Assembly: GCA_002224055.1 (NCBI GenBank)
Contig: AZLU01000007.1
Coordinates: forward strand, 266,001-330,000
Direction: 5' to 3'
Source of the DNA: Pezizomycotina sp. ARF18
Lineage: Eukaryota > Ascomycota
DNA length: 64,000 bases
Positions 3,121-49,422 of this stretch are shown here, in pieces. The stretch's first letter is position 1; the number at the start of each line of letters is the position of its first letter. The notes beneath the pieces were generated by a model. That model worked only from the letters and a program-made list of their open reading frames with translations. It was not told where the DNA came from and made no database searches. A program made the position numbers and the translations under genes.

Positions 3121-3750
3121 ATGCCCTCTCTAGACTCGATACCCCGAACTCCTCCTCCACATCTTCTCTCACCTGCCGTATCTATCCCTCACCACCGCCA
3201 TCCGCTCTACTTGCCGCTCTTCAACTCCGTAGTATCTACGCACGCAGCCTCAACCTACCTTCGTTCAAACCTCTTCCGCGCATCCCCTATACCTCTCACT
3301 ACCAAAATCACCAATAAATCCGAAAACTGCTACGCCGTGCATCCCGCAATACCCAAACTCTTCTCTCCGAATCCAACTCCGTCGGCTTCATAACCACACT
3401 CAACAATTCATACCCCTACAAAATACGCGCGTAGAGAAGGAGAAAGCGATATCGTACGACTCGCGCTTTAACATTAACGACGCACAAGAGGGTCCGTTTA
3501 TTTTATAAGTGGGGAAGTAGAAGCGGAGTTATTGGAGAGGATGACGGTGGGTGATTTCGTCGCGTGGATAGTGAAGAGTAAGTCTGGGAAGAAGAATGGA
3601 GGGGGCAGGCTGTTAGGATGCGTTAGAGGGGGAACGTTGAGTTCTGCGGAGAAGGGTGTTAGTTATAGGTATATTTGCCTGGGGAGTTATGGTGAGAGGA
3701 AGACCGCGGGGGAGGAGAGTTTGGGGCGGTGGTTATACGAGTGTTGTTAG
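3121..3750 (+). pseudogene. F-box-like gene, frame-broken
   Basis: The first frame from the ATG at 3121 reads as basic/proline-rich nonsense. The neighbouring frame reads PELLLHIFSHLPYLSLTTAI and then STCRS, an F-box. A third frame supplies RSIYARSLNLPSFKPLP. Near 3440-3500 the sequence reads EKAISYDSRFNINDAQEGPF, then, after another shift, LERMTVGDFVAWIVKSKSGK to a stop at 3750. This is therefore the third F-box relic in the first 4 kb. Its distance and strand match the 1353 gene, so the two may be old tandem copies. Function cannot be inferred beyond the F-box. Confidence 0.5.
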
Positions 3751-4571
3751 GAGTTTATGAGAAAAAAATTCTTGTATTTGATAGGCGTTGGTTTAGATGA
3801 AAGATATTGTATTTTGGGTTAATAAGGAGTAATTCGTCCGGGTCCTTGGGTTTAGCTTATAGTTAGCCTTCTGTTGCTTACGATACCACGTACGTTTTTG
3901 GGTTTCTAATGCTTTACCGGGGAAACGCGAAGGTGTAATAGGAAAGCTGAAATAGGGTATTATTATATGTAAAGATTGCCACGGACTTCCTCTTTTTTTG
4001 GCTCGGGACTCCCCGCCAGTCTACACGCAGCATTTGAGAATCATAACCACCTTATCTCCATCTCCGTATCTATAGTAGTCGTATCTTTACCGTTAATTAT
4101 CTCTTTTGCACTATTTATATCTCTAATACTAGATGCATATCTACCGCCAGCTATATCTTTGCCGTTGCGCCAAAGTATTTTTAGGTCGCGATGGGTGGAA
4201 ACTCGGTCGGAAGCAAAAGATTCGTTACAATAATTACGTATTTTCGCTCATATCTACCAATAGCCTAGCCTTGGAAATATCTTAACATATGACTACCCAA
4301 AGATAAGAATTTTTAGGGTTGAAGGCTTTTCGATTGAAGAAATTTCTTCTCTGAAGACGCCCTAAGGAGGGAAAAGAGGGATGTGGAGCAAAGTGGGGGA
4401 GATTCGGAGGCTTGGCATGACACTGATGATGCCCACTGCAAAGTTCCCGGGATTTCAGCTTCAAAAAAAAAAAAAAAAAAAACTTTTCCGACTTCAATAG
4501 TTGAGATTATTATACAAACTTACTTCGCCAAATAGACTAGCAAAGAGAGAAATAGCCGTACAGTATCCACG
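3751..4571. other. Intergenic, poly-A tract
   Basis: No coding domain recognised. An A18 run lies at about 4462-4481. I looked here for the missing signal-peptide exon of the family gene that follows and did not find one. Confidence 0.5.
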
Positions 4572-5157
4572 GCGGTTTTGTTACATTCCCTACGTATGAG
4601 ATATACGCCAACGGCCGACAGGATCTGCTTGATGACGGTGTTCAATCGCTTTTCATTATCACCAAGCACCCTAACACCGGTTCAGCGGTGCGGCACAAAA
4701 AATGGTTTCTCAAAGATAGAAGACTCGGGTACAAATTTTATGAGAACAGGCCCGAGAAGGCACGATTTTCTTGAACATAAGAACTGGGGAATATATCGCC
4801 AGCGAAACCGACGTCTTGATTCTTAGCTATGGTCCCCGCTATTCATGCTGGAGGAAGACGACACGATGAACCGCGGGGCGAAGCCCGCAACGAAGCTATC
4901 CTGAGATAAGAAAAGGGTATTGATATTTGATCATGGCGGACGTGCCTGCGGGGATGAGACCAGGCCACTATACTTGGAGGTATTGCCCCTGCCGGGACGG
5001 ACGGTACTATACCGCAAGAATAGACGGGAAGACGGTGAAGCTGCTGGACCTTAAGTGGGACATTCTCGAGGCTTTGTTATCAAGCGGAGATAACCCAGGA
5101 TATATACAAAGGGTCACTTGCGTGGATCTCAAGATCAAGAAGCGTCTGATGTGCTAA
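4572..5157 (+). CDS. Secreted-protein family member 1 (partial)
   Basis: Two pieces of the tandem family described in this window are present. The middle block begins GGFVTFPTYEIYANG, continues LFIITKHPNTGSAV and ends at a TGA at 4772-4774. The C-terminal block starts at the ATG at 4933 and carries HYTWRYCPC, IDGKTVKLLDLKWD and VTCVDLKIKK before the stop at 5157. The latter matches the family pattern YxWxYC ... GKxVxLxxLxW ... CxDxxxKK. No signal-peptide exon was found upstream, and the two blocks lie in different frames with stops between them. It is therefore a truncated copy, or the two blocks are joined by an unrecognised intron. Function unknown. Confidence 0.5.
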
Positions 5158-6311
5158 CTGGAATTTTAGATGGAAGTTCAAGAAAGAGGAACTAGATTGA
5201 ATTTTGAATTCATATCACATATCGCTTAGCTTTTTCTAGCTGCTGTATTTCGCAATCTTTGGTTCTTATTGTTTCACGCCTCCGTCTAAAGGTTGCCGAT
5301 GTTCAGCAGAATTGATCATCTCACGTGTATTTCTTAATGTGATTAACAATCAAATTTATTTTCACAAGTCAAATAGGTAGCTCAGCGTTGAATCCAGTAA
5401 CTGCATAGATAACTAGAAGTCATGAACATTTCCCCTGTGCAAGTGTAATCAATATTGGAGGGTTGGACATATTTTTCGCGTAGAGGAATTATTCGTAGTA
5501 TAATTGCTTTGAATTTCAATTAAATCAAAAGGTATACTAATAAAACAAGAATATTTTTATGATTGTTGATTGGAGAGGCGGAAGCCTGGCAGCACGTCGG
5601 CGCAGCGTGCGGGGGTGACGGTGGGTAGTTGACAGGTGGCGCAAACGCGGAGGAGCTAAAATTCGCACAGCCCTACAGGTCATGTTTAGCATTTACCCGC
5701 GTGCCCGCCCGGTAAATTTTTTTCTGAACCTTTAAAACATTTACGGATAGCTTATTTCTAACTCTAAATAACAGAGAGAATGATACCTACTCTTAGTTCC
5801 TCATATATATATATATATATATATATATTTGCGTGCGAATCGATAGTTTATAATATGTCCAAAATTAAGACGTGCGAGCGAAGCACAAGGCTGTGACCAC
5901 GCCGAGGCTAAAATACACCGGCACAGGTCGGATATTTTGTTCATAGCCTTTTATATTTATACTCATGCGAACCAAGACGTTCCGCCAACTATAAACCTCT
6001 ACGATGAAACATTTGGATCGCGGCTTGCCTTCTGTTCACCAACATCACCATAAAATATCGGCAGTGTAGTCTATCTTTCCAATTTAGCCGGAACAAAAGG
6101 CAGCATCACAAAAAGATAAATTAAACCGAAGAGAAGCCGTACCTCCATCAGTAAGCTGGTAAGAAAATGAATACAATTACCCACCCTTCCAATATCAAAG
6201 AACTCCTTCATTTGCGAAAGCACAAATAACGTTCATTCATCGCATCTTGCAAGTTTTCAACCTCTCAGACCTTAGTTAATCAAGAAGCCAGCTTTCGCAT
6301 GCCAAAGAGTC
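5158..6311. other. Intergenic with AT microsatellite and GC-rich patch
   Basis: No gene recognised. An (AT)n run lies at about 5803-5827. A GC-rich patch of about 120 bp at 5575-5700 stands out from its AT-rich surroundings, but I cannot assign it. Confidence 0.5.
5803..5828. repeat. (AT)n microsatellite
   Basis: Uninterrupted AT dinucleotide run within AT-rich intergenic DNA upstream of family member 2. Confidence 0.85.
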
Positions 6312-7213
6312 ATGACAAGGACCTTCCTTGCCGTTTCCCTTATTTTTGCTGGACTCAAGTTTTCTAGCGCGGGCAATCAGTTCCGCAAGGAATTTTCGCT
6401 CGAAGTGAAAGTTTACAGGCCTAGGTATGAGACTATTCCCAATTCCCAATCTCATACTTTCCCTAAAGGAAAAGAGAAAGAAAGAAAGAAAGAAAGAAAC
6501 GAACCCCCAGAGATGCGTAATATTCTCATGTCAAATATCCCATTAAATTTTTTCTGAAGGATATCGCTGATAGATATTAAAACAAATAGTCCAAATCCTC
6601 TCGACGGAACCTTCATAACCCTCCCGCAGGACTATCATGTGGAGCTGGATGATCAGCCGGTCAAAGACTTGCGGTGGTTATTGATTAGGGGGAATGATCC
6701 CCACACCGGAGTGGCGGAGAAAGACGAGAACTTTTACTGGGACTATACTACACTCAGCTACAAAATCAAGGAGTCAGGGCGGACGCCCAAGACACTCTAT
6801 TTAGAGATTGGTTACATGCGTCTCAATCCATCAATTTGCTAGCAAAGCTTTTATGCTAGATCACCAGGAGGCTTTCCATACCGTACACCGGTACGCAAAG
6901 TACCAGAAGTAGGTTTCGAGAAAAGGAAGACAAGCGATGGAACAGGCGTGGAAGAATATTGGAGATCAAGAATATACCTAATAAAGGTGAATCAGACAAG
7001 TATGGCTGGAAGTACTGCTGGAATATAAACGACCGGGACCGACGTTATACCGCAAACGTTGGCGGGAAGAAGGTGAAATTATGGGACCTATACTGGGGCC
7101 CTAAACAAGAGACGCGGATTCTCATTCCCATGCCGGGTCATGGGGAGGATATATTTGACCTTTTTGATTGCGTGGATATATTACTTAAGAAACAACCTGT
7201 AAAACCAAGCTGA
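6312..7213 (+). CDS. Secreted-protein family member 2
   Basis: Best-preserved member of the tandem family. Exon 1 (6312-6424) encodes a signal peptide, MTRTFLAVSLIFAGLKFSSA, followed by the short conserved strand EFSLEVKVYRP. A GTATGA donor at 6425 and a TAG acceptor at 6589, with a gctgat branch site, define a 165-bp intron in phase 2. Exon 2 continues in frame with DGTFITLPQDYHVELDD and LRWLLIRGNDPHTG. Read straight through, it stops at 6842. The C-terminal block lies at about 6960-7213: YGWKYCW, VGGKKVKLWDLYWGPK and DCVDILLKK. How exon 2 joins this block is unclear; a second intron or a frameshift is needed. Two cysteines, in YC and CVD, are conserved in the C-terminal block and may form a disulfide. 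The role is unknown; secretion is inferred from the signal peptide. Confidence 0.6.
6425..6589 (+). other. Intron of family member 2
   Basis: GTATGA donor, gctgat branch-like element and AATAG acceptor. Splicing joins the signal-peptide exon in frame to the conserved middle block. It contains an AAAG tetranucleotide run near 6475-6497. Confidence 0.55.
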
Positions 7214-8044
7214 AACAAATGTATTTAAAGACTGCCCCCCACTTGACATTGAAGCATAAAGATTATTCTTTTATTATACTTCTTCTGACACGTATTGAGA
7301 CTCTTCATTTTTTGATCTCGCCATTCACTTTAACCCTTTGTGAGAATATGAGTACCTTTGACACATCGTGCAATATTCAGAATGAAATGGAAGCATCTGG
7401 GAGGTGCCGACAGTATGTGAGAAAGGACTGTACCTTGCCTGCTGCAGAGCCAGTTATATTATGTAACAAAAGGCTTATTTGCAAACATTATGGAGACCGA
7501 GAGTAGTGGTTCGGGCACCGGTAAAATGGTCACTGCGGTTGACAGGCCAATCTAAGCTTTTTATGCATCAGGCCTTTCATAAGGCGGTGGCTGAGAGGTC
7601 TATCTACGCCAAGAATATTGCTTTAATTGCGGATACATTTGCCTCCTCCAATAGCTGGTTAAAATCGTTATAACTACGCCGAGTAGCACTTCAAAAAATA
7701 CAACAAGTTAGATATCGCAACAACCTTGACATCTCCGCTATTTACGCTCGAATAACTGGAGCAATCGGCAATTTACACAAGGCTACATCATTATCATGAG
7801 ACCATTCACAAATCGAACCTCCGAGCACCGCAAATCTAGTACTGGTAAGGATCTAAATCTAAGTATATAAGACGCCGGACCTCCGTATTCGAGGTCAAAT
7901 TAAAGAGGGTCAAAATCTGACTCTCTATCGTCACCCAAGAATTTTAAATCATTATTCCTCTCGTTTATTTCTTATTACTCTCCAGGGAACTTTCTGAAGT
8001 TCGAACGACAACACGGATTCTTAAAAAGCGAAACGACGATCGAA
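7214..8044. other. Intergenic, no gene seen
   Basis: Short open frames only, including a cysteine-containing one ending at 7506 that shows no family match. A TATATAA element sits near 7863-7870, upstream of the next gene. Confidence 0.4.
7863..7870 (+). promoter_or_regulatory. Probable TATA box of family member 3
   Basis: TATATAA lies about 175 bp upstream of the ATG at 8045, a spacing similar to that seen at other genes in this window. Confidence 0.4.
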
Positions 8045-8911
8045 ATGATGGCGAAATCTCTCTTCCTGACTTGGGTTGCGATTGCTGGGGTGATGCAAGT
8101 TGCTAGTGCAGACGATCATCCTCCGCCTAACAGCGGTCCGAGAAGTTGCCCTAAAAGTAGAAGTGGTTGACATCGAGGCGCTCAACAAGATGCCTAGTGG
8201 TAGTATGCGTAAGGATAAGTGAGTCGTTCTTTGAAAAATCCAATGATTAATAAAGAAAGGAGGGGAAAGGCAAGGGCTACAGTGCTCCTTTTCCGCTGGG
8301 TTTCTTGGTTTACTAAAGAAATTCGCTCGATCTCATTTTAGATTTACTCGCCTCGACGTTCATTCATTGCATACGTGGGAGCCGGGCCAGCCCTCCTTTC
8401 TCACGATCAAGGCCGACAGGTATTACGGACGCCCGACTCCAATTTTTCATCACCGAGAATAAAAACCTTGCCCATGCCGACGGAAAAGCGCCTACGCAGC
8501 CGCGAATCTCCTTACATTGCAACTCGGTCACTTCGATAACAACAACCCTGCTCACTTCAGAAGCCAGCTTTTCATGGACAAGGCAGGGCACTTGGGCGCT
8601 GGAGGACGCTAGCCGGGAACGTACACTTCCAGGAGAGCGGTACCAAGATAGGATATCTGACGATAAGGGACGTGCCGACAAGCGAGTCGACTGAAAACCT
8701 CGAAAACACGACGACTATACCTGGAACTTTTGTGAGGGTGACAAGAGCCAGGGAGACTTCCACGAAAAGGAAGTGGACGGCCAGAAAGTCCTCTTGGGGG
8801 AACTGACTTGGGGCCCTAAGGATACAGAAGCCGACGACCGCTGGGGTGAAGAGGTCATGTGTGGATCTCCGGCTCAAGAAGTTCGTCCTGGAATCTCAGA
8901 AGCAAAGTTAA
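8045..8911 (+). pseudogene. Secreted-protein family member 3, frame-broken
   Basis: The ATG at 8045 opens with a good signal peptide, MMAKSLFLTWVAIAGVMQVA, then DDHPPPNSGP. After a one-base shift the family strand VREVALKVEVVDIEALNK appears, ending at a GTGAGT donor near 8218. The middle block from about 8340 is spread over two frames (FLTIKADRYYG; FFITENKNLAHADGKA). The C-terminal block reads DDYTWNFCEGDK and VDGQKVLLGELTWGPK, then shifts once more to CVDLRLKKFVLESQKQS, stopping at 8909-8911. That last motif is the family end signature, so this is the true terminus rather than the longer open frame to 8928. Three or more frameshifts. Upstream TATA supports former or current transcription. 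Confidence 0.5.
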
Positions 8912-9083
8912 AGGCTACAAAGTTATAAACTACCATAATCTCGTTCCCAGATCTTGTGGTTTCGGGATTTATCGCGTTTATGTTATTCGATCAAATCTTT
9001 TGCGTTATCTCAACTGAACCAAAGCTTTCCGTGTGCTCTCTTGAATTTGTACTTTGACTTTTTCATCTTCTTTTCATTCCTCT

Positions 9084-9119
9084 TTTTGTTTTTGTTTTTG
9101 TTTTTGTTTTTGTTTTTGT
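9084..9119. repeat. (TTTTTG)n simple repeat
   Basis: Six or so tandem TTTTTG units, producing a leucine/phenylalanine shadow frame that is not a membrane protein. Confidence 0.85.
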
Positions 9120-9574
9120 CATGGCCTGATTCCAAACTAACAAAGAACTTCTTTACCGATTCCATGATTCGACAACTCGGCATCCCTTTAAGTGTCGTTC
9201 AAGTCAGAGTTTTCGTAGACAAATGTGCAACTTTTAAATGAGGATCGGAGTGCCTTTTAGTCCTGATTGGCAGCAAAAATATAAAAGGTGTTCGTAGTCT
9301 GTACGAAGACGCTTCCGAAGCCAGTCTCGCGTTTCCAAGTCCAGAGTGCAAGGAGATAGATCTATAGATCTCGCTACCTCCTCACAAGTCAATGCAGATG
9401 CTTAGAGAACTGCAGCGCTAAGGTTATAAACTCTGCTCTGGATACATTTATCATAGGATGAAATATTATTATAATATCGGAACGGCATTAAATGCTTTCT
9501 AATTTCTATGGCCCTTCCATTTCGCGCAAAATTCGAGATTTAGCTCAAACGCCAATGATAATATTTTTTTTTAA

Positions 9575-9580
<6 letters not shown>

Positions 9581-9606
<26 letters not shown>
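9581..9606. repeat. (GA)n microsatellite
   Basis: Uninterrupted GA dinucleotides preceded by a T9 A11 stretch. Confidence 0.85.
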
Positions 9607-10497
9607 CGGGGAAGAAACTCACTATTCTCAAAAAATCCAAGCAAAAGTAAAACGAGGGTAAACGTGCGAAGAGAGGCTTTTCCTCGACAACAATATGTGC
9701 TAGCGTAGGATATATTTTATTAGGGAAAGGGTGGCGCGCGGAATTGAGGATTCACTAGTGGCCCTTTGAAACAAAAATGGCTTTTGGCTGCTTAAAAGGC
9801 CTGCGCTGGGGGTTCCCTCTATTTTTCCGTGCCGAAACCTTTTACATGCCATTGAGGATGGTCCAGGAAGGCAATGTTCAACGCCTATAACAAGTGATTT
9901 CAGAGGCTCGCAGCGCCTTTTTGCCTAACAGTCCTTCCCTAGTACGGAATCACTTGGGCGAGGAGGACCTTAATATGAACAATTAGTTTCGTTTCAGACG
10001 GACGGAAAGTCAGTTATCATTGGCGGTGCTTTGGGGCTTGCGCAGCAGGGTAGTAATAAACTACATGAAGCGATGAAGGTCCGAATTTCATGCGTAACAA
10101 TCTGCGCCTCCCGAAGGCGACCTCGCCCAGAATCCAACATCCGAAAGAAGTTCTAGCTCGCTACCGCGCCCATTTTCTGAATGGTTGACCCAGCCGCCAA
10201 AACGAGACCTATCGACGGCGTGCTAACTCTCCCCAGTGATTACGCGATAACTGTCGACTCTAGAAGCCCCCCGGTTAAACTACTTCCGAATATTGGAGTT
10301 TGCGATGCAGAGCAACGTAAAACGATGCCTTGTGATTCGACGCGGTTACTTAAGGGCGTTGATTTCCTTCCCATATGGAAGTAAAAGTCCATTTTGTCGT
10401 TTTTGCTACTGTACTCCGCTCCGGAAGGAACGAGCTGCGAAATTCGTAAATATTCGAAAATATACTCATCGGCATTTGTAAAAACTGACAACAAAGA

Positions 10498-11758
10498 TGA
10501 GACGCTCGTTTTCGGCCTCGTTCTCTCAGCAATCACTAGTTTTCAGATCGCTGCTACGATACCCGTCCCTGTCGACCATTCCGTCGACCCTCCCGCCAAC
10601 CGTGTTAATCTTCGGTGCGACCCTCCCGTCGACCCTGCCGTCAATTCTCCTCCCAACGTCCGCGCCAACCTTTGATGCGATCCTCCCGTTAACAGCCCCG
10701 TCAACCGTCTCGCCAACCCTCCAGTCAACAATCCCACCAATCATCCCGCCAACCCTCCCATCAGTCGTCCAGTCAACAATCCGTCAACAGACCCGCCAAT
10801 TATAGCGTTAAACATCCTAGCCACAGCCCCATTCGCCAGGCTAATGACCTTCAAACGGAAAATTCTCGCAAGCCAGAGAAACCTTCTCGTCGAACGGGTC
10901 CTTACGACCCCAAACAGAGAACTTATCGATATTTCTTCGAGACCAAACATTATCCAGGTTGCCTCTGAATAACCCTCCTCTGGAGTGCCATTGCGCCAAC
11001 TTCAAGCCGCCTGCCAAAAGTCCTCCCCCAGACCCTCATTTGTACCATCCTAGCATGCCTGCGGAGAAACAAAAGAAGTTCGCCCTTCGGGCGGAAGTTC
11101 CAGAAGATAGGTAGGAACTCTAATCTCATTTCACTAGTATAAGGACGCGTTCCAAATAATCTTTTAAATAGGTCCAGAAGTGAGCATTGCTGACCAAGAA
11201 TCGAGAGATAATATATAGCTCTAGTATTGTTAACGGAGGCTTCGTAGAAATGACCATCCGCTTATTAATAAACATCGGCAACCCGGATACCCAGATCCCG
11301 CCGAAGTCGGACGCCGGTTTCTTCCTAGACAAAGGATCGCTCTGGCATCTTTCGGCATACGGGAGGACTGGGCCTTTGTCCTGAAGAATTTGCCATGAAA
11401 GCTCTCGTCCGGCAGCCCTCGGAACGTTGATACTGAGATAATGGGCGGAAGCCACATGAGATCTCTTGGCCTGTTGCCAAAAACAGGTCTCTATTTCGAC
11501 GAAAACGATTATCTGGTTGAAGGAGATTTACCAGACAGCAAAAGTCCCTCCGATTATACCTGGCATTATTGTCCTCGTCCGGAGAGCCGGAAAGGTTGAG
11601 GACACACTAAGTGTGAAGCATGAGATACTGAAGTGGGGAAATAAGGGCTTCAATGAATATGATTACCACTTGTCTGAAATATATGGTCGCGGAAACTTTT
11701 TTATCTCAAATGTCAGGACATACGTCTGAAGAGGTACGAGATAGCGGGCAAGTGTTAG
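10498..11758 (+). pseudogene. Secreted-protein family member 4 with Pro/Asn-rich repeat linker
   Basis: An ATG at 10498 is followed, one frame over, by LVFGLVLSAITSFQIAA, a convincing signal-peptide core. A long linker of imperfect tandem units resembling NPPV or DPPV then runs from about 10570 to 10800 (for example VDPPAN, NPTNHPANPP), with one in-frame TGA. The family strand KKFALRAEVPEDR ends at a GTAGGA donor near 11111. The middle block (NGGFVEMTIRLLINIGNPDT) lies near 11230. Then come YFDENDYLVEG and DYTWHYCPRPESRK; after a shift, HEILKWGNKG, and finally CQDIRLKRYEIAGKC with stop at 11756-11758. All family landmarks are present in order, but several frames are needed. Function unknown. 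Confidence 0.5.
10570..10800 (+). repeat. Imperfect tandem Pro/Asn/Val-rich coding repeat
   Basis: Short units of 12-15 bp centred on CCTCCCGTCGAC/AAC recur with variation. In the family frame they encode DPPV/NPPV-like units placed between the signal peptide and the first conserved strand. A shorter version of the same linker (PANHPANPPANPPA) occurs in member 5. Confidence 0.65.
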
Positions 11759-12851
11759 GATATTATAGGTATCAAAAATGTGAATATAGTTATTATATAT
11801 TGTGCTCTTGTTTGTTTCTCTGCTTTGTACTCACGTCTTTGCATTTATCTTCAATTGTGGAACATATAAATGATGTGACAAGGGAAAATGGAAATGGACA
11901 AAGTACAAGATCCTCCAGATCGGCCGGAGATATTCTGCTTAAGACATATACTTTATCTGCTCTTTGCTTTGGTGCACGTGTTTTTAGATTGTGAGATGAC
12001 AATAATTCAACCATTTAATCAATGCCTTGTCATACAGTAAATTCGCGCCAATAGTCGACAATGTTTCTTAAACTGGCAGTACTGGACAACTACATGGACT
12101 ATAATCTAGACCACAATGGAAAGCGGAGCGAGGATCTAGCAAGACAAGATGGATTGCTATTCTTTCAAATCCTTTTCTTTAGAATAAGAGGGAGGGGAAA
12201 CTACAACCCGCTCTCAGAAGAGACCTTATAAATGATTCACAAAAGTCATGCTATGAGAGCTCGAGAAAGAAACTCTTCGCCCCGCAAATTCAACCGATGA
12301 AATTAATTCTCTTTTGCCAGCTAGGCATAGGCACAAAATGATTCCCGAATGGTCCTAAGTTTACCTCGCTCTAGCGAACCCAGTGCTCCGTCACACATAT
12401 TATGGTTAATAGCTTTTAAATGTGGCTCTGTGCGCAAATACTTGGTCCGGCTAATAGAATCCATACATACCAACGCCGTGTGGAGGCTGTGACGTTAAGC
12501 AAGCAGCACGCGGTCCGCGGCATAAATGATTGCACTGGAATCTTTTAAGCGAGTGTGCCTAACTTTGGCACAACCTGCGCCGGCATTATTGGAACCCAAG
12601 GCGGTGAAAAACGAAACGCGGGGCCAACATCAAAAATATGCATTGCTGGTCCAAATTCGCAAAATCTAGCCTCTGCAAAAGTCTCGCACACTACTTAGAA
12701 GGGCGTGGATACAAACAATGAATATTTAAATAGGCTAACGCGACCCCTGCTTGTTAAAATGCGATTAGACAATTATCACAGAAGCATACGCGCCATTTCA
12801 CTGCTCTCCATCCGACTACTACGCCATTAAATATATATATAGAGGAATACA
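11759..12851. other. Intergenic, no gene seen
   Basis: AT-rich sequence without a recognisable domain. An ATATATATATA stretch at 12829-12840 precedes the next gene and could serve as its TATA element. Confidence 0.45.
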
Positions 12852-13764
12852 TGAGCAGGTTTTCATTTCTGGGCATCGTCTTCTTAGTTATAGTTGGTTT
12901 CATATGACCTGCCATAGCTTACGATTCCGGCAATCCTCTTGCAAAGCCCCAAGCAAATCTGCCAGCGAACCATCCCGCGAACCCTCCCGCAAACCCTCCC
13001 GCAAGCCCTTCCGCTGGGACTTCCGCAGGCCGTGGTGCGGACCCTCCTGAAAAACCTGTCGCGAAACCACAGCGGTTCGCCCTCCGAGTGGAAGATCCTT
13101 TCAACCCGTAAGAGCAACCCCCATCGAATATCTGTCTTCAAAATTTGACCCAAGTTTCTCTTTTTATGTTCCGATTACTGAACATTGAATTATTTTGAAA
13201 ATACCCTACAGATCTAGTGAGGTTCACGGGGCCTATATAACTAACTTCCGTCCCTTATGGGGTGATCCTATGGCCTCCAACCTTTTAATCAATATCGGAA
13301 ATCCCAAGCTGGGTATCGCACCTATAGCCGATGGCGGTTACTACATCTACCGCAGCGTCCAGACCGTCCTCGCCATGGACATGACCCTCACAGGACGCCG
13401 TCTTTCAGCAGCTGGAAGGGACCGGTCTCGCGGAACCTGCCAGGTAACCCGTATGGTCCCGGCATCAAAAGCCGCCAGGGCTTGGGGATCCTCCGACGAA
13501 AGTTTATTTCGATAAAACGGTTACCTATCTGTAGGTTTAATATCGAGAGAAGCCGAAAGAATAAAACAGAACGGCATTACGTGGATTTGGTGTCCCTGGA
13601 CCTCGCCTACAAGGTCTTATGAGTGGAAAGTAGGAGGAAAGGATGTGATCTTGAAGAATTTGAACTGGGGAACTAAGAGATACAAGGATACCCGTGTAGA
13701 GGGTGTGTTGGTAAGCTGTCACGATGTTCGATTAAAGAGGGTTCCGCTACGGGAGGCAAGTTAA
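12852..13764 (+). pseudogene. Secreted-protein family member 5
   Basis: The ATG at 12852 starts a signal-peptide-like segment, MSRFSFLGIVFLVIVGFI, interrupted by TGA and continuing PAIAYDSGNPLAKPQ. A Pro/Ala/Asn repeat linker (PANHPANPPANPPASP) follows, then the family strand QRFALRVEDPFN ending at a GTAAGA donor near 13109. After an ACAG acceptor near 13211 the middle block reads VHGAYITNFRPLWGD, LLINIGNPKLGIAPIADGGY. After at least one shift come VYFDKTVTYLSVG, GITWIWCPW, VGGKDVILKNLNWGTK and SCHDVRLKRVP, stopping at 13762-13764. One nonsense codon and one or two frameshifts break it. The linker and strand closely match member 4, so these two are probably the most recent duplicates. Confidence 0.55.
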
Positions 13765-27162: not shown

Positions 27163-27771
27163 CTATAGCATCTTCCACTGTACACGAATCACACTTCCAT
27201 CGCCATCCCTCGCGCCAAAGGCCGTCCAGAGGTCGCTCGTCATATCGATACTTCGGTCGGAGCTTAAATTCCTGTCAGCGATGATAGCGGTTCTCACGAC
27301 CTTGTTGGGGCCTTTGATCTGTATCTTCCTTCCGCATAGTTGATTATGCTGTGCGGCTCCCATGGGGTCGAATACGTTGAATGCCATCGCGACAAGAGGT
27401 GTGTTATCCGATGGTGGAACTCGCGATGTAAAGTATGTGGAAAGGCCACAGGCGCCGGCCGTGTACAACTGGCGACGTGCGGGAGCTGCTGGCCCGTACT
27501 GGAAGATGCTACCGGTGATACCCGTAAATGCATAGTACGACCCTGGGATAGACCGCTTCACTGTGACTGCACTATGCTCTTCAGGTTGGGCATTGGTGAT
27601 ATTCACTCCAGAATTGTCGTTAATGACAAAGTCTTGCAACCACTCATTGCTAAAGGTTTGAGCGTTCTGTACTTCAGTGCCACTGTGATCTCCCAGGGTA
27701 TTGGTAGGCAGCGGTACGGTGAGCGCCAGGCCAAAGAGTGTGAAGAGAATTAGGTGGAAGATCTTGAACAT
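27163..27771 (-). CDS. Secreted double-psi beta-barrel (RlpA/expansin-like) protein
   Basis: An intact 202-codon frame. The signal peptide is MFKIFHLILFTLFGLALTVP; a Kex2-type KR lies at residues 72-73, leaving a mature domain beginning SIPGSYYAFTG. The domain reads GACGLSTYF (Cys108), PLVAMAFNVFD, LCGRKIQIKGPN (Cys146), AIIADRN, SIDMTSDLW and ends VIRVQWKML. This order of ACG...VA...CG+.I.I...V.D...IDM...W is typical of double-psi beta-barrel proteins related to RlpA, expansins and plant kiwellins, which act on or near cell walls. A paralogue with the same motifs lies at 40224. No full catalytic set can be asserted, so it may be a non-enzymatic wall or host-interaction protein. Confidence 0.75.
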   Translation of the reverse strand: MFKIFHLILFTLFGLALTVPLPTNTLGDHSGTEVQNAQTFSNEWLQDFVINDNSGVNITNAQPEEHSAVTVKRSIPGSYYAFTGITGSIFQYGPAAPARRQLYTAGACGLSTYFTSRVPPSDNTPLVAMAFNVFDPMGAAQHNQLCGRKIQIKGPNKVVRTAIIADRNLSSDRSIDMTSDLWTAFGARDGDGSVIRVQWKML

Positions 27772-27991
27772 AATGCTTGAAATCGCTGAGAAGATCTGAT
27801 AGGTAATAGCAGAATCTATTGAGAGAACGGATACAAAGTGATTAGGAACGCAGATTATGTGAAAGGAAAGGATGTTGAAAAGAAGCGAGATGAATTGAAG
27901 AGAGAAGGGCCTTCACAGAAGGTGTGTTGATTGTCGTAGTGTATAGTGCTGATGCATATCAGAAAAGGAGGATCATGGGGTCGAGATCCAT

Positions 27992-40050: not shown

Positions 40051-40223
40051 AGCCATTCCCTCCTACTTCATCTACCTTTATTCTCCGTCATCATTCGGAT
40101 TATCTTTTCCTCGTGTTAACATATCCGCTCCTTAATCTAAAGCAATCTATACTCCCTTGAATAGCAACCACACACTCCTTTACAAATAACCAGCACATTC
40201 CTTTGAATAAACCAACAAAAAAC

Positions 40224-40846
40224 ATGCATTTCACCAACATCCTCCTCCTCTCCGCCGCCGCCAGCATCGCCAACGCTGCCGTTCTCCCCCGCACCGCAAA
40301 CCCCTCCGTCCTCCTAAAGCGCTGCTCCTGGGAAGGCCACTGCGAAGGCAGCCCCTGCGGAAACGAAAACGACTGCTCCGACGACCTCATCTGCCGCAGC
40401 GGCCAATGCTCCAATCCCAACGGCGGCAGTAACCCTCCTCCTCCCCTCCTCCCCATCCGGCAACCTCCCGGCTGGCTCCGGAAATGGAACCAACAGCACG
40501 GCTCCATCTTCCGCTTCGGCGACCCCTCTGGACCCCGGCAGGAATTCTACAATTCCGGCTCATGTGGTTTATCGACGTACTTCAAGGACGGGTGCCGGAC
40601 TGGATGCCGTTGGTCGCTATGCCGATTAGCGTTATGCAGCAGTTCGGGAAGTCGCAGCATAATAAGCTGTGCGGGAGGACGATAAGTATTAAGGGGCCTA
40701 ATGGGCAGGTTAAGCAGGCTGCGGTTGCGGATACTAATATGAGCAGGAATGATAATAGCGTCGATATGACGTTGGATCTGTGGGAGGCGTTTGGCGGACA
40801 CGATGGGGATGGTTCGTTGCTTAATATTCAATGGAAGATGGATTAG
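40224..40846 (+). pseudogene. Secreted six-cysteine plus double-psi beta-barrel protein, one frameshift
   Basis: The ATG at 40224 starts a signal peptide (MHFTNILLLSAAASIANA) and a Kex2-type KR at residues 32-33. Next is a compact six-cysteine module, from CSWEGHCEGSPCGNENDC through ICRSGQC. A proline-rich linker (NPPPPLLP) leads to the barrel: GSIFRFGDPSGP and SGSCGLSTYFKD. One base shift near 40586 is needed to continue as PLVAMPISVMQQ, KLCGRTISIKGPNGQVK, AAVADTNMS, SVDMTLDLWEAFGG and LNIQWKMD, stopping at 40846. The barrel aligns motif by motif with the protein at 27163-27771, so the two are paralogues. The N-terminal cysteine module is absent from the other copy and could bind chitin or another ligand; that is speculation. 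Confidence 0.65.
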
Positions 40847-47940: not shown

Positions 47941-49422
47941 CTAATAGTCTACAGCGAGACCCTTGCGTGTTTTAATGGCGTCCATCCCCAATCCAACGTT
48001 AAAGCTGGGGCACAAGTACGTTACGATTCTCAGAGAATCCTTTGCTAAGGCACAGCTAACGTAAAAATGACTGCCGACGCGGTCCTCTAATAGTTTCGTT
48101 CCACTGCGATCCATTGTCAGCAACCGTGTTTTCCTTTCTTATAGATAAACAGTATGTGATACTTACTAAATACTCTTCAGCGCCTTCTCGTAATTATCCA
48201 TCTGGCTCAGCATTAGCTCCCTATTGCTATCCGTCCTTGTCTCAAAGTACCGCCGCAACCTCGCGAGCACCTCCGCATCATTCTCGCAAACGAAATCGGA
48301 GAAATGTAAACCTTCGGCGTAGCAGGCTTTCCAGCGCCGATGGTAAAGTAAAAGCCCGGTCCTGCACGCTCCTCTCCACCAGATGGTAGTTCCGCGGGCG
48401 CATCGCCGATGAAAATCCTCCAGAAGTCTTTGACATCGTTCAGTACGCTCTCGCTGTACGAGTTTATATCGTACCGTCCACCAAGGGTTAGGGCGTCGAT
48501 GAGGTATTCCACAGTCGTATTCGGTGCGCGGGTGTACAGTTTTATTCTTGACGCCTTCGGTGAAATAAGATCGATCGAAAAAATACCCGTTTCCATCTTC
48601 CACTTCTGTGCAGCTTCGCGGAGGTAGTCCAGCATCGGTTCCGGATTAAGCGATTCGTACTGTTGCGCCGGAAGAGCTTTAATAGCTCGTATCACAACCT
48701 CCAGGTTCGATATACCCAATTCCTGCGCCCGTAGTCCCGGGAAAATGTAAAGCTTAACGATCGGTCCGCTCCTCCGATATCACGTGTGACAAATGTTCCG
48801 GCGTTCGGTGCGAGTTCGAAGTTGAGTTTATCCGTCATCCGTACCCTTTCAAGATCATCCGGCAGTACATGTTTCATGAAGTGATTATACCACTCTAGAT
48901 CCAGGCTCGCCACAAGTCCCTGACTGTCGAGGTGTTTAATCCATGCATCCGTCTCGTACCGATTGAATGGGTCGATCTCTGTTCCCGCATTAGGTCCGAT
49001 GGGTTCGAAGGAAGTCCTAATAACACCTCGTCCATCGAGCCCCCACTCCCAACTCAAGTCGATCGGCGTACCATCGGGCGTCTGCGGACTCCGCCACCTC
49101 AAATACCCATCTTTATCTGGTGAAGGACCAAGTTCGGGAATAACGTGTAGTCCGTAGAAAAGTAATTCCGTATACTGCTCCGACTTTTCGTATCCGGCGT
49201 ACTTTAATAGTTCAGCAAGCTGGGAGCCTGTTCTGTCCCACCAAAACTGATGGTGTTGGTTCTTAAACGTGATGATGGAGTTGACAATGTCGAACGGCTG
49301 GAAGGAGGAGATGTTGTCCTTTTTAGGTGAAGTTGTTGGTACTAGTTCGCGTTTTGTGGATTCTTTTTCTATAAGGGCATTGTTGCCATTGTATACAAAG
49401 GTCTAGTGGCCGTCGGTGCCAT
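47941..49422 (-). pseudogene. DMATS-type aromatic prenyltransferase, frame-broken
   Basis: The ATG at 49422 (MAPTAT) is followed after an early shift by a long frame with FWWDRTGSQLAELLKYAGYE, LLFYGLHVIPELGP, DLSWEWGLDGRG and RTSFEPIGPNAGTEIDPFNR. These are hallmarks of fungal indole/DMATS prenyltransferases, which transfer dimethylallyl groups to tryptophan or related aromatics. A shift near 48760 leads to IVKLYIFPGLRAQELG, RIKLYTRAPNTTVEYLIDAL and FYFTIGAGKPATPKVYISP; another near 48285 leads to DAEVLARLRRYFE. A 63-bp intron (48104-48166) joins the last exon, GSHFYVSCALAKD. Total length, about 460 residues, suits the family. Three shifts but no nonsense substitutions. No other secondary-metabolism gene is visible nearby, so it is an orphan or cluster remnant. 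Confidence 0.7.
48104..48166 (-). other. Intron of the prenyltransferase gene
   Basis: GTAAGT donor, GCTGAC branch site and CGCAG acceptor; phase 2, rebuilding a tyrosine codon and joining the last two conserved prenyltransferase segments. Confidence 0.65.

What the first reader, a model, noticed from the sequence alone, without database searches (positions are those of the whole stretch)
4572..13764. Tandem cluster of an unrecognised secreted-protein family with a shared block architecture
Five same-strand copies in about 9 kb share, in order, a signal peptide (seen in members 2-5, interrupted in 5 and offset in 4), a short strand such as FALRVE or FSLEVK ending at an intron, a middle block (GxFxT...L[LF]IxxxxP), and a C-terminal block. 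That last block is seen five times as YTWRYC, YGWKYC, YTWNFC, YTWHYC and ITWIWC. Each is followed by a G-K-x-V-x-L-x-x-L-x-W core or a variant of it, and by CVDLKIKK, CVDILLKK, CVDLRLKK, CQDIRLKR or CHDVRLKR. Conservation of these pieces across diverged copies indicates a real family under past selection. I recognise no described family.
Basis: partly seen in the sequence, partly recalled or inferred. Interest (0 to 1): 0.88.

Follow-up and report, generated by a model that had tools for sequence, protein, structure and literature searches.

The report
Tandem family of fungal secreted proteins
A fungal genome carries, side by side, at least five distantly related copies of an apparently undescribed small secreted protein; their broken reading frames look mostly like assembly errors rather than gene death, and such tandem secreted-protein families are common in fungi.

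Summary
Window 4559-13764 carries five same-strand gene copies with a shared block order, plus the middle block of a sixth at 10208-10315. Ten of 12 pairwise piece comparisons score at p <= 0.011 against 1000 codon shuffles. Copies 2-5 share a phase-2 intron after the first strand; in three it sits exactly 10 codons + 2 bases after the F. Two cysteines, both in the C-terminal block, are common to all five. Six pieces searched against the genome gave six non-self matches, five of them in this cluster. No library used here names the family. The one lead, fungal DUF7907 (E 0.061), failed a low-powered profile comparison.

New point: the assembly has frequent frame errors. HSP70 and RNA-polymerase genes of the same genome change frame without room for an intron, so broken frames here are poor evidence of pseudogenes.

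Best reading: a lineage-restricted, tandemly duplicated family of small secreted, probably all-beta proteins stapled by one disulfide; target and role unknown. A new family of a known kind. Fungal proteomes could not be searched, so "undescribed" is limited to the libraries used.

The parts
4559..4771 (+). copy 1, middle block (GGFVTF...LFIITKHPNTG)
4924..5154 (+). copy 1, C-terminal block (YTWRYC ... CVDLKIKK)
6312..6424 (+). copy 2, exon 1: signal peptide and first strand FSLEVK
6425..6589 (+). copy 2, intron, phase 2, GTATGA...AG
6590..6809 (+). copy 2, middle block
6938..7210 (+). copy 2, C-terminal block (YGWKYC ... CVDILLKK)
8045..8218 (+). copy 3, exon 1: signal peptide, frame change, first strand VALKVE
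8219..8341 (+). copy 3, intron, phase 2, GTGAGT...AG
8343..8456 (+). copy 3, weakly preserved middle block
   Evidence: E 0.14 although it was in the profile
8695..8908 (+). copy 3, C-terminal block (YTWNFC ... CVDLRLKK, in two frames)
10490..11110 (+). copy 4, exon 1 (approximate start): hydrophobic leader, proline-rich spacer, first strand FALRAE (several frames)
11111..11171 (+). copy 4, intron, phase 2 donor GTAGGA...AG; the acceptor does not continue in the frame of the middle block
11223..11381 (+). copy 4, middle block
11477..11755 (+). copy 4, C-terminal block (YTWHYC ... CQDIRLKR, same frame with stops between, core in another frame)
12851..13107 (+). copy 5, exon 1: leader with an in-frame TGA, proline-rich spacer, first strand FALRVE
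13108..13211 (+). copy 5, intron, phase 2, GTAAGA...CAG
13213..13419 (+). copy 5, middle block
13516..13761 (+). copy 5, C-terminal block (ITWIWC ... CHDVRLKR)

Best explanation
A tandem cluster of at least five genes (and one fragment) of an undescribed, lineage-restricted fungal family of small secreted proteins. Shown: block order, leader peptides in copies 2 and 3 (by eye), shared phase-2 intron, two shared cysteines, clustering. Inferred: the leader sends each protein out of the cell; a domain of roughly 170 residues folds into beta strands; one disulfide joins the cysteine of the YTWxYC strand to that of the last CxD strand; copies 4 and 5 add a proline-rich spacer between leader and domain. 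The proteins would act outside the fungus by binding (no enzyme signature adopted), the copies diverging after duplication to meet different partners or competitors. Most frame breaks are assembly errors, so at least some copies are probably working genes.
For: Pairwise shuffle tests, 10 of 12 pairs; small profiles rank the cluster's C-block pieces (5 of 5) and 4 of 5 middle pieces first among 3033 frames, though they were built from those pieces; phase-2 donor in 4 of 4 copies where exon 1 is found, at an identical distance in 3; two cysteines shared by all five; five of six non-self genome matches fall in the cluster; housekeeping genes show the same kind of frame breaks; both low-confidence models contain mainly strands.
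Against: No transcript or protein evidence. No copy is seen whole in one model; copy 1 lacks a visible exon 1. Frame breaks here (about 12 in 3004 nt, counted by hand; the one in copy 2 could be a second intron) exceed the housekeeping rate (17 in 8376 nt; expected 6.1, P = 0.022), so some lesions may be real; and not every gene near by is broken (an open 249-residue frame at 27166-27912). Models are of low confidence (mean pLDDT 49.6 and 53.7). The codon-position test gave no sign of selection. The pairing of the two cysteines and the role are inference.
Confidence: 0.55

Rival explanations
1. A graveyard: an old tandem family whose copies have all decayed into pseudogenes.
For: Frame changes in at least four of five copies (copy 2's could be an intron), a TGA in the leader of copy 5, no exon 1 seen for copy 1, a sixth copy reduced to one block; frame-break density about twice the housekeeping rate, P = 0.022.
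Against: HSP70 and RNA-polymerase genes of the same assembly are broken the same way; donor phase and two cysteines are kept in diverged copies; inference: at 16-45% identity neutral decay should have erased blocks, splice phase and cysteines more widely.
Confidence: 0.25
2. The copies are strongly diverged members of the fungal secreted family DUF7907 (PF25484), which occurs elsewhere in this genome. (This overlaps with the best explanation; the two are not exclusive.)
For: Copy 5's C-block matches the DUF7907 tail end to end (E 0.061 and 0.077); by eye, true members L003 and L004 share a W-x-x-C strand and a final C-x-x-[VI]-x-L tail.
Against: Only 1 of 5 copies gives the match, with 13.9-14.2 bits against a cut-off of 27; other pieces gave equally weak hits to three other families. 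Profile comparison with pieces of L003-L005 gave no support (P 0.22 and 0.62; shallow alignments, low power). Intron phase 1 in L003, read by eye, versus phase 2 here.
Confidence: 0.25
3. Members of a described effector-candidate family of plant-associated fungi (powdery-mildew YxC/RNase-like proteins or IGY proteins).
For: Small size, secretion, a unified gene structure and (often) two conserved cysteines are reported for both; clustering of family members for the powdery-mildew set (PMC3582587, PMC4367982; passages read).
Against: No aromatic residue two before the shared cysteine and the motif is C-terminal, not N-terminal; no IGY motif after the leader and no QMxIP tail in the frames read; no RNase family among the Pfam hits.
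Confidence: 0.05
4. Chance resemblance of unrelated frames.
For: Motifs are short, identity is low, and two of 12 pairs do not beat shuffles.
Against: Ten of 12 pairs beat shuffles; same-phase introns; genome-wide matches return to the cluster.
Confidence: 0.01

Closest known systems
DUF7907 (PF25484), fungal secreted domain of unknown function
   Same: W-x-x-C strand, closing C-x-x-[VI]-x-L strand with the second cysteine, an early intron in L003 (by eye)
   Different: no match over the cut-off for any copy and none at all for 4 of 5; intron phase differs; the PQLFW segment of L003 is not seen in the copies
Powdery-mildew candidate secreted effector proteins with YxC motif (PMC3582587, passages)
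   Same: small, secreted, clustered families, shared intron position in the RNase-like part, often two cysteines, high divergence
   Different: no N-terminal [YFW]xC seen, no ribonuclease relation found
IGY proteins of Marssonina and other Dikarya (PMC4367982, passages)
   Same: small secreted, low identity with conserved motifs at both ends, unified gene structure, two conserved cysteines
   Different: no IGY motif, no QMxIP tail; mostly three exons there, a second intron here is not shown
Expanded candidate-effector families of Venturia inaequalis (PMC9632046, passages)
   Same: sequence-diverse families, members clustered, tandem duplication suspected
   Different: fold here not known; organism here unnamed and without a GH28 match

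Membership tests
DUF7907 (PF25484) | score above the curated cut-off of 27 bits | tested here: not met
   best 14.2 bits, copy 5 C-block; no DUF7907 match for the other pieces scanned
DUF7907 (PF25484) | profile similarity to true members | tested here: inconclusive
   hhalign of A3 and A4 with pieces of L003-L005: P 0.22 and 0.62; no support, but 3-5 sequences a side give little power
DUF7907 (PF25484) | same intron position and phase as the true member L003 (not known to define the family) | tested here: not met
   phase 1 in L003 against phase 2 in copies 2-5; splice sites read by eye
DUF7907 (PF25484) | same fold | tested here: inconclusive
   piece models of low confidence, mostly strands; no DUF7907 model made
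Powdery-mildew YxC/RNase-like candidate effectors | [YFW]xC in the first 30 residues of the mature protein | tested here: not met
   no cysteine in copy 2's exon 1 or in the listed middle pieces; the copy 4 exon 1 piece holds two, neither with an aromatic residue two before; residue two before the shared Cys is R, K, N, H or I. Copy 1 has no known N-terminus
Powdery-mildew YxC/RNase-like candidate effectors | ribonuclease-like domain | tested here: inconclusive
   no RNase family among Pfam hits at E <= 10, but many such proteins are recognised only by structure, which was not testable here
IGY proteins | IGY motif next to the leader and QMxIP at the C-terminus | tested here: not met
   translations of copies 2-5
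Secreted protein family (general kind) | N-terminal signal peptide | tested here: inconclusive
   copies 2 and 3 clear by eye; 4 and 5 only across frame or stop faults; 1 not found; no prediction program was used

The most novel reading that the evidence does not exclude
A secreted-protein fold family not yet described, confined to one fungal lineage and kept as a working tandem cluster that diversifies to face other organisms, in a fungus with no polygalacturonase match and so perhaps not a typical plant pathogen (a lichen or other partner-bound fungus would fit).
Probability: 0.25. Interest if true: 0.6.

Novelty: new member of a known kind. Interest (0 to 1): 0.42.

Why it matters
If the genes work, they add a family to the large pool of unnamed fungal secreted proteins and a compact natural series of diverged copies for asking what stays fixed (intron phase, two cysteines, W-x-x-C strand) while the rest drifts. 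The broader lesson is practical: in an error-rich assembly, broken frames cannot be read as pseudogenes, and gene callers would probably miss families like this.

Tried and rejected
Chance: disfavoured by shuffles. More copies elsewhere: none credible. An isolated match on contig C37 (E 0.035) shows no other block by eye (forward frames). A motif pattern had 16 matches in the genome against 15 for the reversed control; two are copies 1 and 4, and of the other 14 the 13 that came as loci were read on the matched strand without finding the rest of the block (one search had read the seven minus-strand ones on the wrong strand). No match in the 20 kb upstream (best E 0.68 and 0.8). The genome search cannot exclude others: the copy 5 C-block found only itself although it aligns well to copy 2. 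Protein-collection search: copy 2 C-block none; two DUF7907 genes of the same genome none, so the collection seems poor in fungi. PDB by sequence: nothing meaningful. The codon-position test is uninformative. An apparent crotonase match inside copy 5 (NCBIfam E 8.7e-6) was followed and not adopted: its first part lies in the middle block that copy 4 shares without any crotonase match, and the remainder alone falls to E 0.009. This is a judgement; the E-value is low for chance. The low-confidence models were not sent to fold search. A plasmid search was of no use.
Full report
What was checked. The window lies on contig C7 of a 46.36 Mb, 408-contig genome, searched as G000. I take it as fungal from its introns and from a two-piece tryptophan dimethylallyltransferase at 48.2-49.4 kb. 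Two F-box-like frames near 0.6-1.6 kb score below the family cut-off. No tool names the organism.

The copies. Copies run on the + strand at about 4.56-5.15, 6.31-7.21, 8.05-8.91, 10.49-11.76 and 12.85-13.76 kb. A sixth middle block, at 10208-10315, aligns to copy 2's with score 56; the next best score in six spacer stretches and two distant stretches, both strands, is 40. Copies 4 and 5 form a subgroup: a proline-rich spacer after the leader and 45% identity over 49 aligned middle-block residues; the other pairs are at 16-41%.

More than chance. Of 12 pairs of single-frame pieces, all six C-block pairs (copies 1, 2, 3, 5) beat all of 1000 codon shuffles; of six middle-block pairs (copies 1, 2, 4, 5) four reach p <= 0.011 and two do not (0.084, 0.16). 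I left copy 4 out of the C-block set and copy 3 out of the middle set because their open pieces are short. Against the whole genome, six piece queries gave six non-self matches (limit E 0.001, E 10 in the others); five lie in the cluster, with E from 1.3e-4 to 0.084, and one on C37 at E 0.035 shows no further block. The search is not exhaustive: the copy 5 C-block found only itself.

Gene structure. In copies 2-5 the first strand is followed by a GT donor in phase 2, with an AG acceptor that makes introns of 165, 123, 61 and 104 nt. In copies 2, 4 and 5 the donor is exactly 10 codons plus 2 bases after the F of F-x-L; in copy 3 it is 24 codons plus 2 after the matching position. In copies 2, 3 and 5 the acceptor continues in the frame of the middle block; in copy 4 it does not. 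Splice sites were chosen by eye among the GT and AG present. No exon 1 was seen for copy 1. A second intron between middle and C block in copy 2 is possible but not shown. Only two cysteines are shared by all copies, both in the C-block; copies 1 and 4 have extra ones.

Why the frames are broken. Pieces of five HSP70 loci and of one RNA-polymerase gene on C15 were taken as yardsticks. Their matches abut or overlap in different frames, for example seven pieces on C49:53036-54818; reading C49 and C15 directly shows the conserved protein hopping between frames. Counting only frame changes with at most 45 nt between pieces gives 17 in 8376 nt over six loci. That count used 30 of the 37 HSP70 matches listed (those on C44 and C10 and four overlapping or weak ones on C70 and C3 were left out) and 3 of the 8 polymerase matches. 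In the cluster I counted by hand about 12 changes in 3004 nt, against 6.1 expected (P = 0.022). So assembly error explains the frame breaks in kind and perhaps half or more of their number, but some lesions, in copies 3 and 4 above all, may be real. Not every gene is broken: a 249-residue frame at 27166-27912 is open.

What it might be. Ten pieces against Pfam at E <= 1 gave four weak hits, all to different families, among them the tail of DUF7907 on copy 5 at E 0.061; a second set at E <= 10 repeated it at 0.077. By number alone such hits are near what chance gives. DUF7907 has true members in this genome (L003, L004; L005 is below the cut-off), which by eye share the W-x-x-C strand and the closing cysteine strand. 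A profile comparison gave no support, with little power, and the intron of L003 reads as phase 1. I keep DUF7907 as a lead for fold, not as a membership. NCBIfam adds nothing except a crotonase-like stretch in copy 5, judged a likely coincidence. Structure models of the separate middle and C blocks contain mainly strands but are of low confidence (mean pLDDT 49.6 and 53.7).

How it most likely works. Shown: leader peptides in copies 2 and 3 (by eye), block order, cysteines, introns by phase and distance, clustering. Inferred: secretion, a beta domain closed by one disulfide, binding rather than catalysis, and divergence after tandem duplication. Comparable families are described in powdery mildew (PMC3582587), Marssonina (PMC4367982) and Venturia (PMC9632046); passages of each were seen, and the motifs that define the first two are not met here. 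The genome has cutinase-family matches at six places but no GH28 match at E <= 1e-4, which is a hint, no more, that this is not a typical plant pathogen; frame errors lower the sensitivity of both searches.

Limits. Fungal proteomes are not searchable here. No paper in the held library has the terms DUF7907, PF25484 or YTWRYC; that library covers open-licence papers only. Signal peptides were judged by eye. The statement that the family is undescribed rests on these searches alone.

Noticed in passing
genome G000; e.g. L054 and L055: Pieces of conserved housekeeping genes change reading frame about once per 500 nt without room for introns (17 in 8376 nt): an error-rich assembly, which affects every gene reading in this window.
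   Followed up: yes
10208-10315 (+): Middle block of a sixth copy between copies 3 and 4, no other block seen beside it.
   Followed up: partly
13306-13470 (+): Short crotonase-like stretch inside copy 5 (NCBIfam E 8.7e-6, PDB E 0.001); probably coincidence, not settled.
   Followed up: partly
27166-27912 (-) and 40161-40843 (+): Two related proteins with leader-like starts (51% identity over 112 residues) and no Pfam match at E <= 0.01; the second changes frame. Resemblance to a double-psi beta barrel is recalled, not tested.
   Followed up: partly
48216-49402 (-): Tryptophan dimethylallyltransferase gene in two frames, possibly part of a secondary-metabolite locus.
   Followed up: no
7890-7910 (+): 21-nt repeat (81%) of the copy 5 tail region between copies 2 and 3; could be a tail relic or chance.
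   Followed up: no
1378-1417 and 3144-3183 (+): 40-nt repeat (85%) between an F-box-like frame and a second frame downstream; the second has no Pfam match.
   Followed up: no
genome G000: No GH28 polygalacturonase match, cutinase-family matches at six places.
   Followed up: partly
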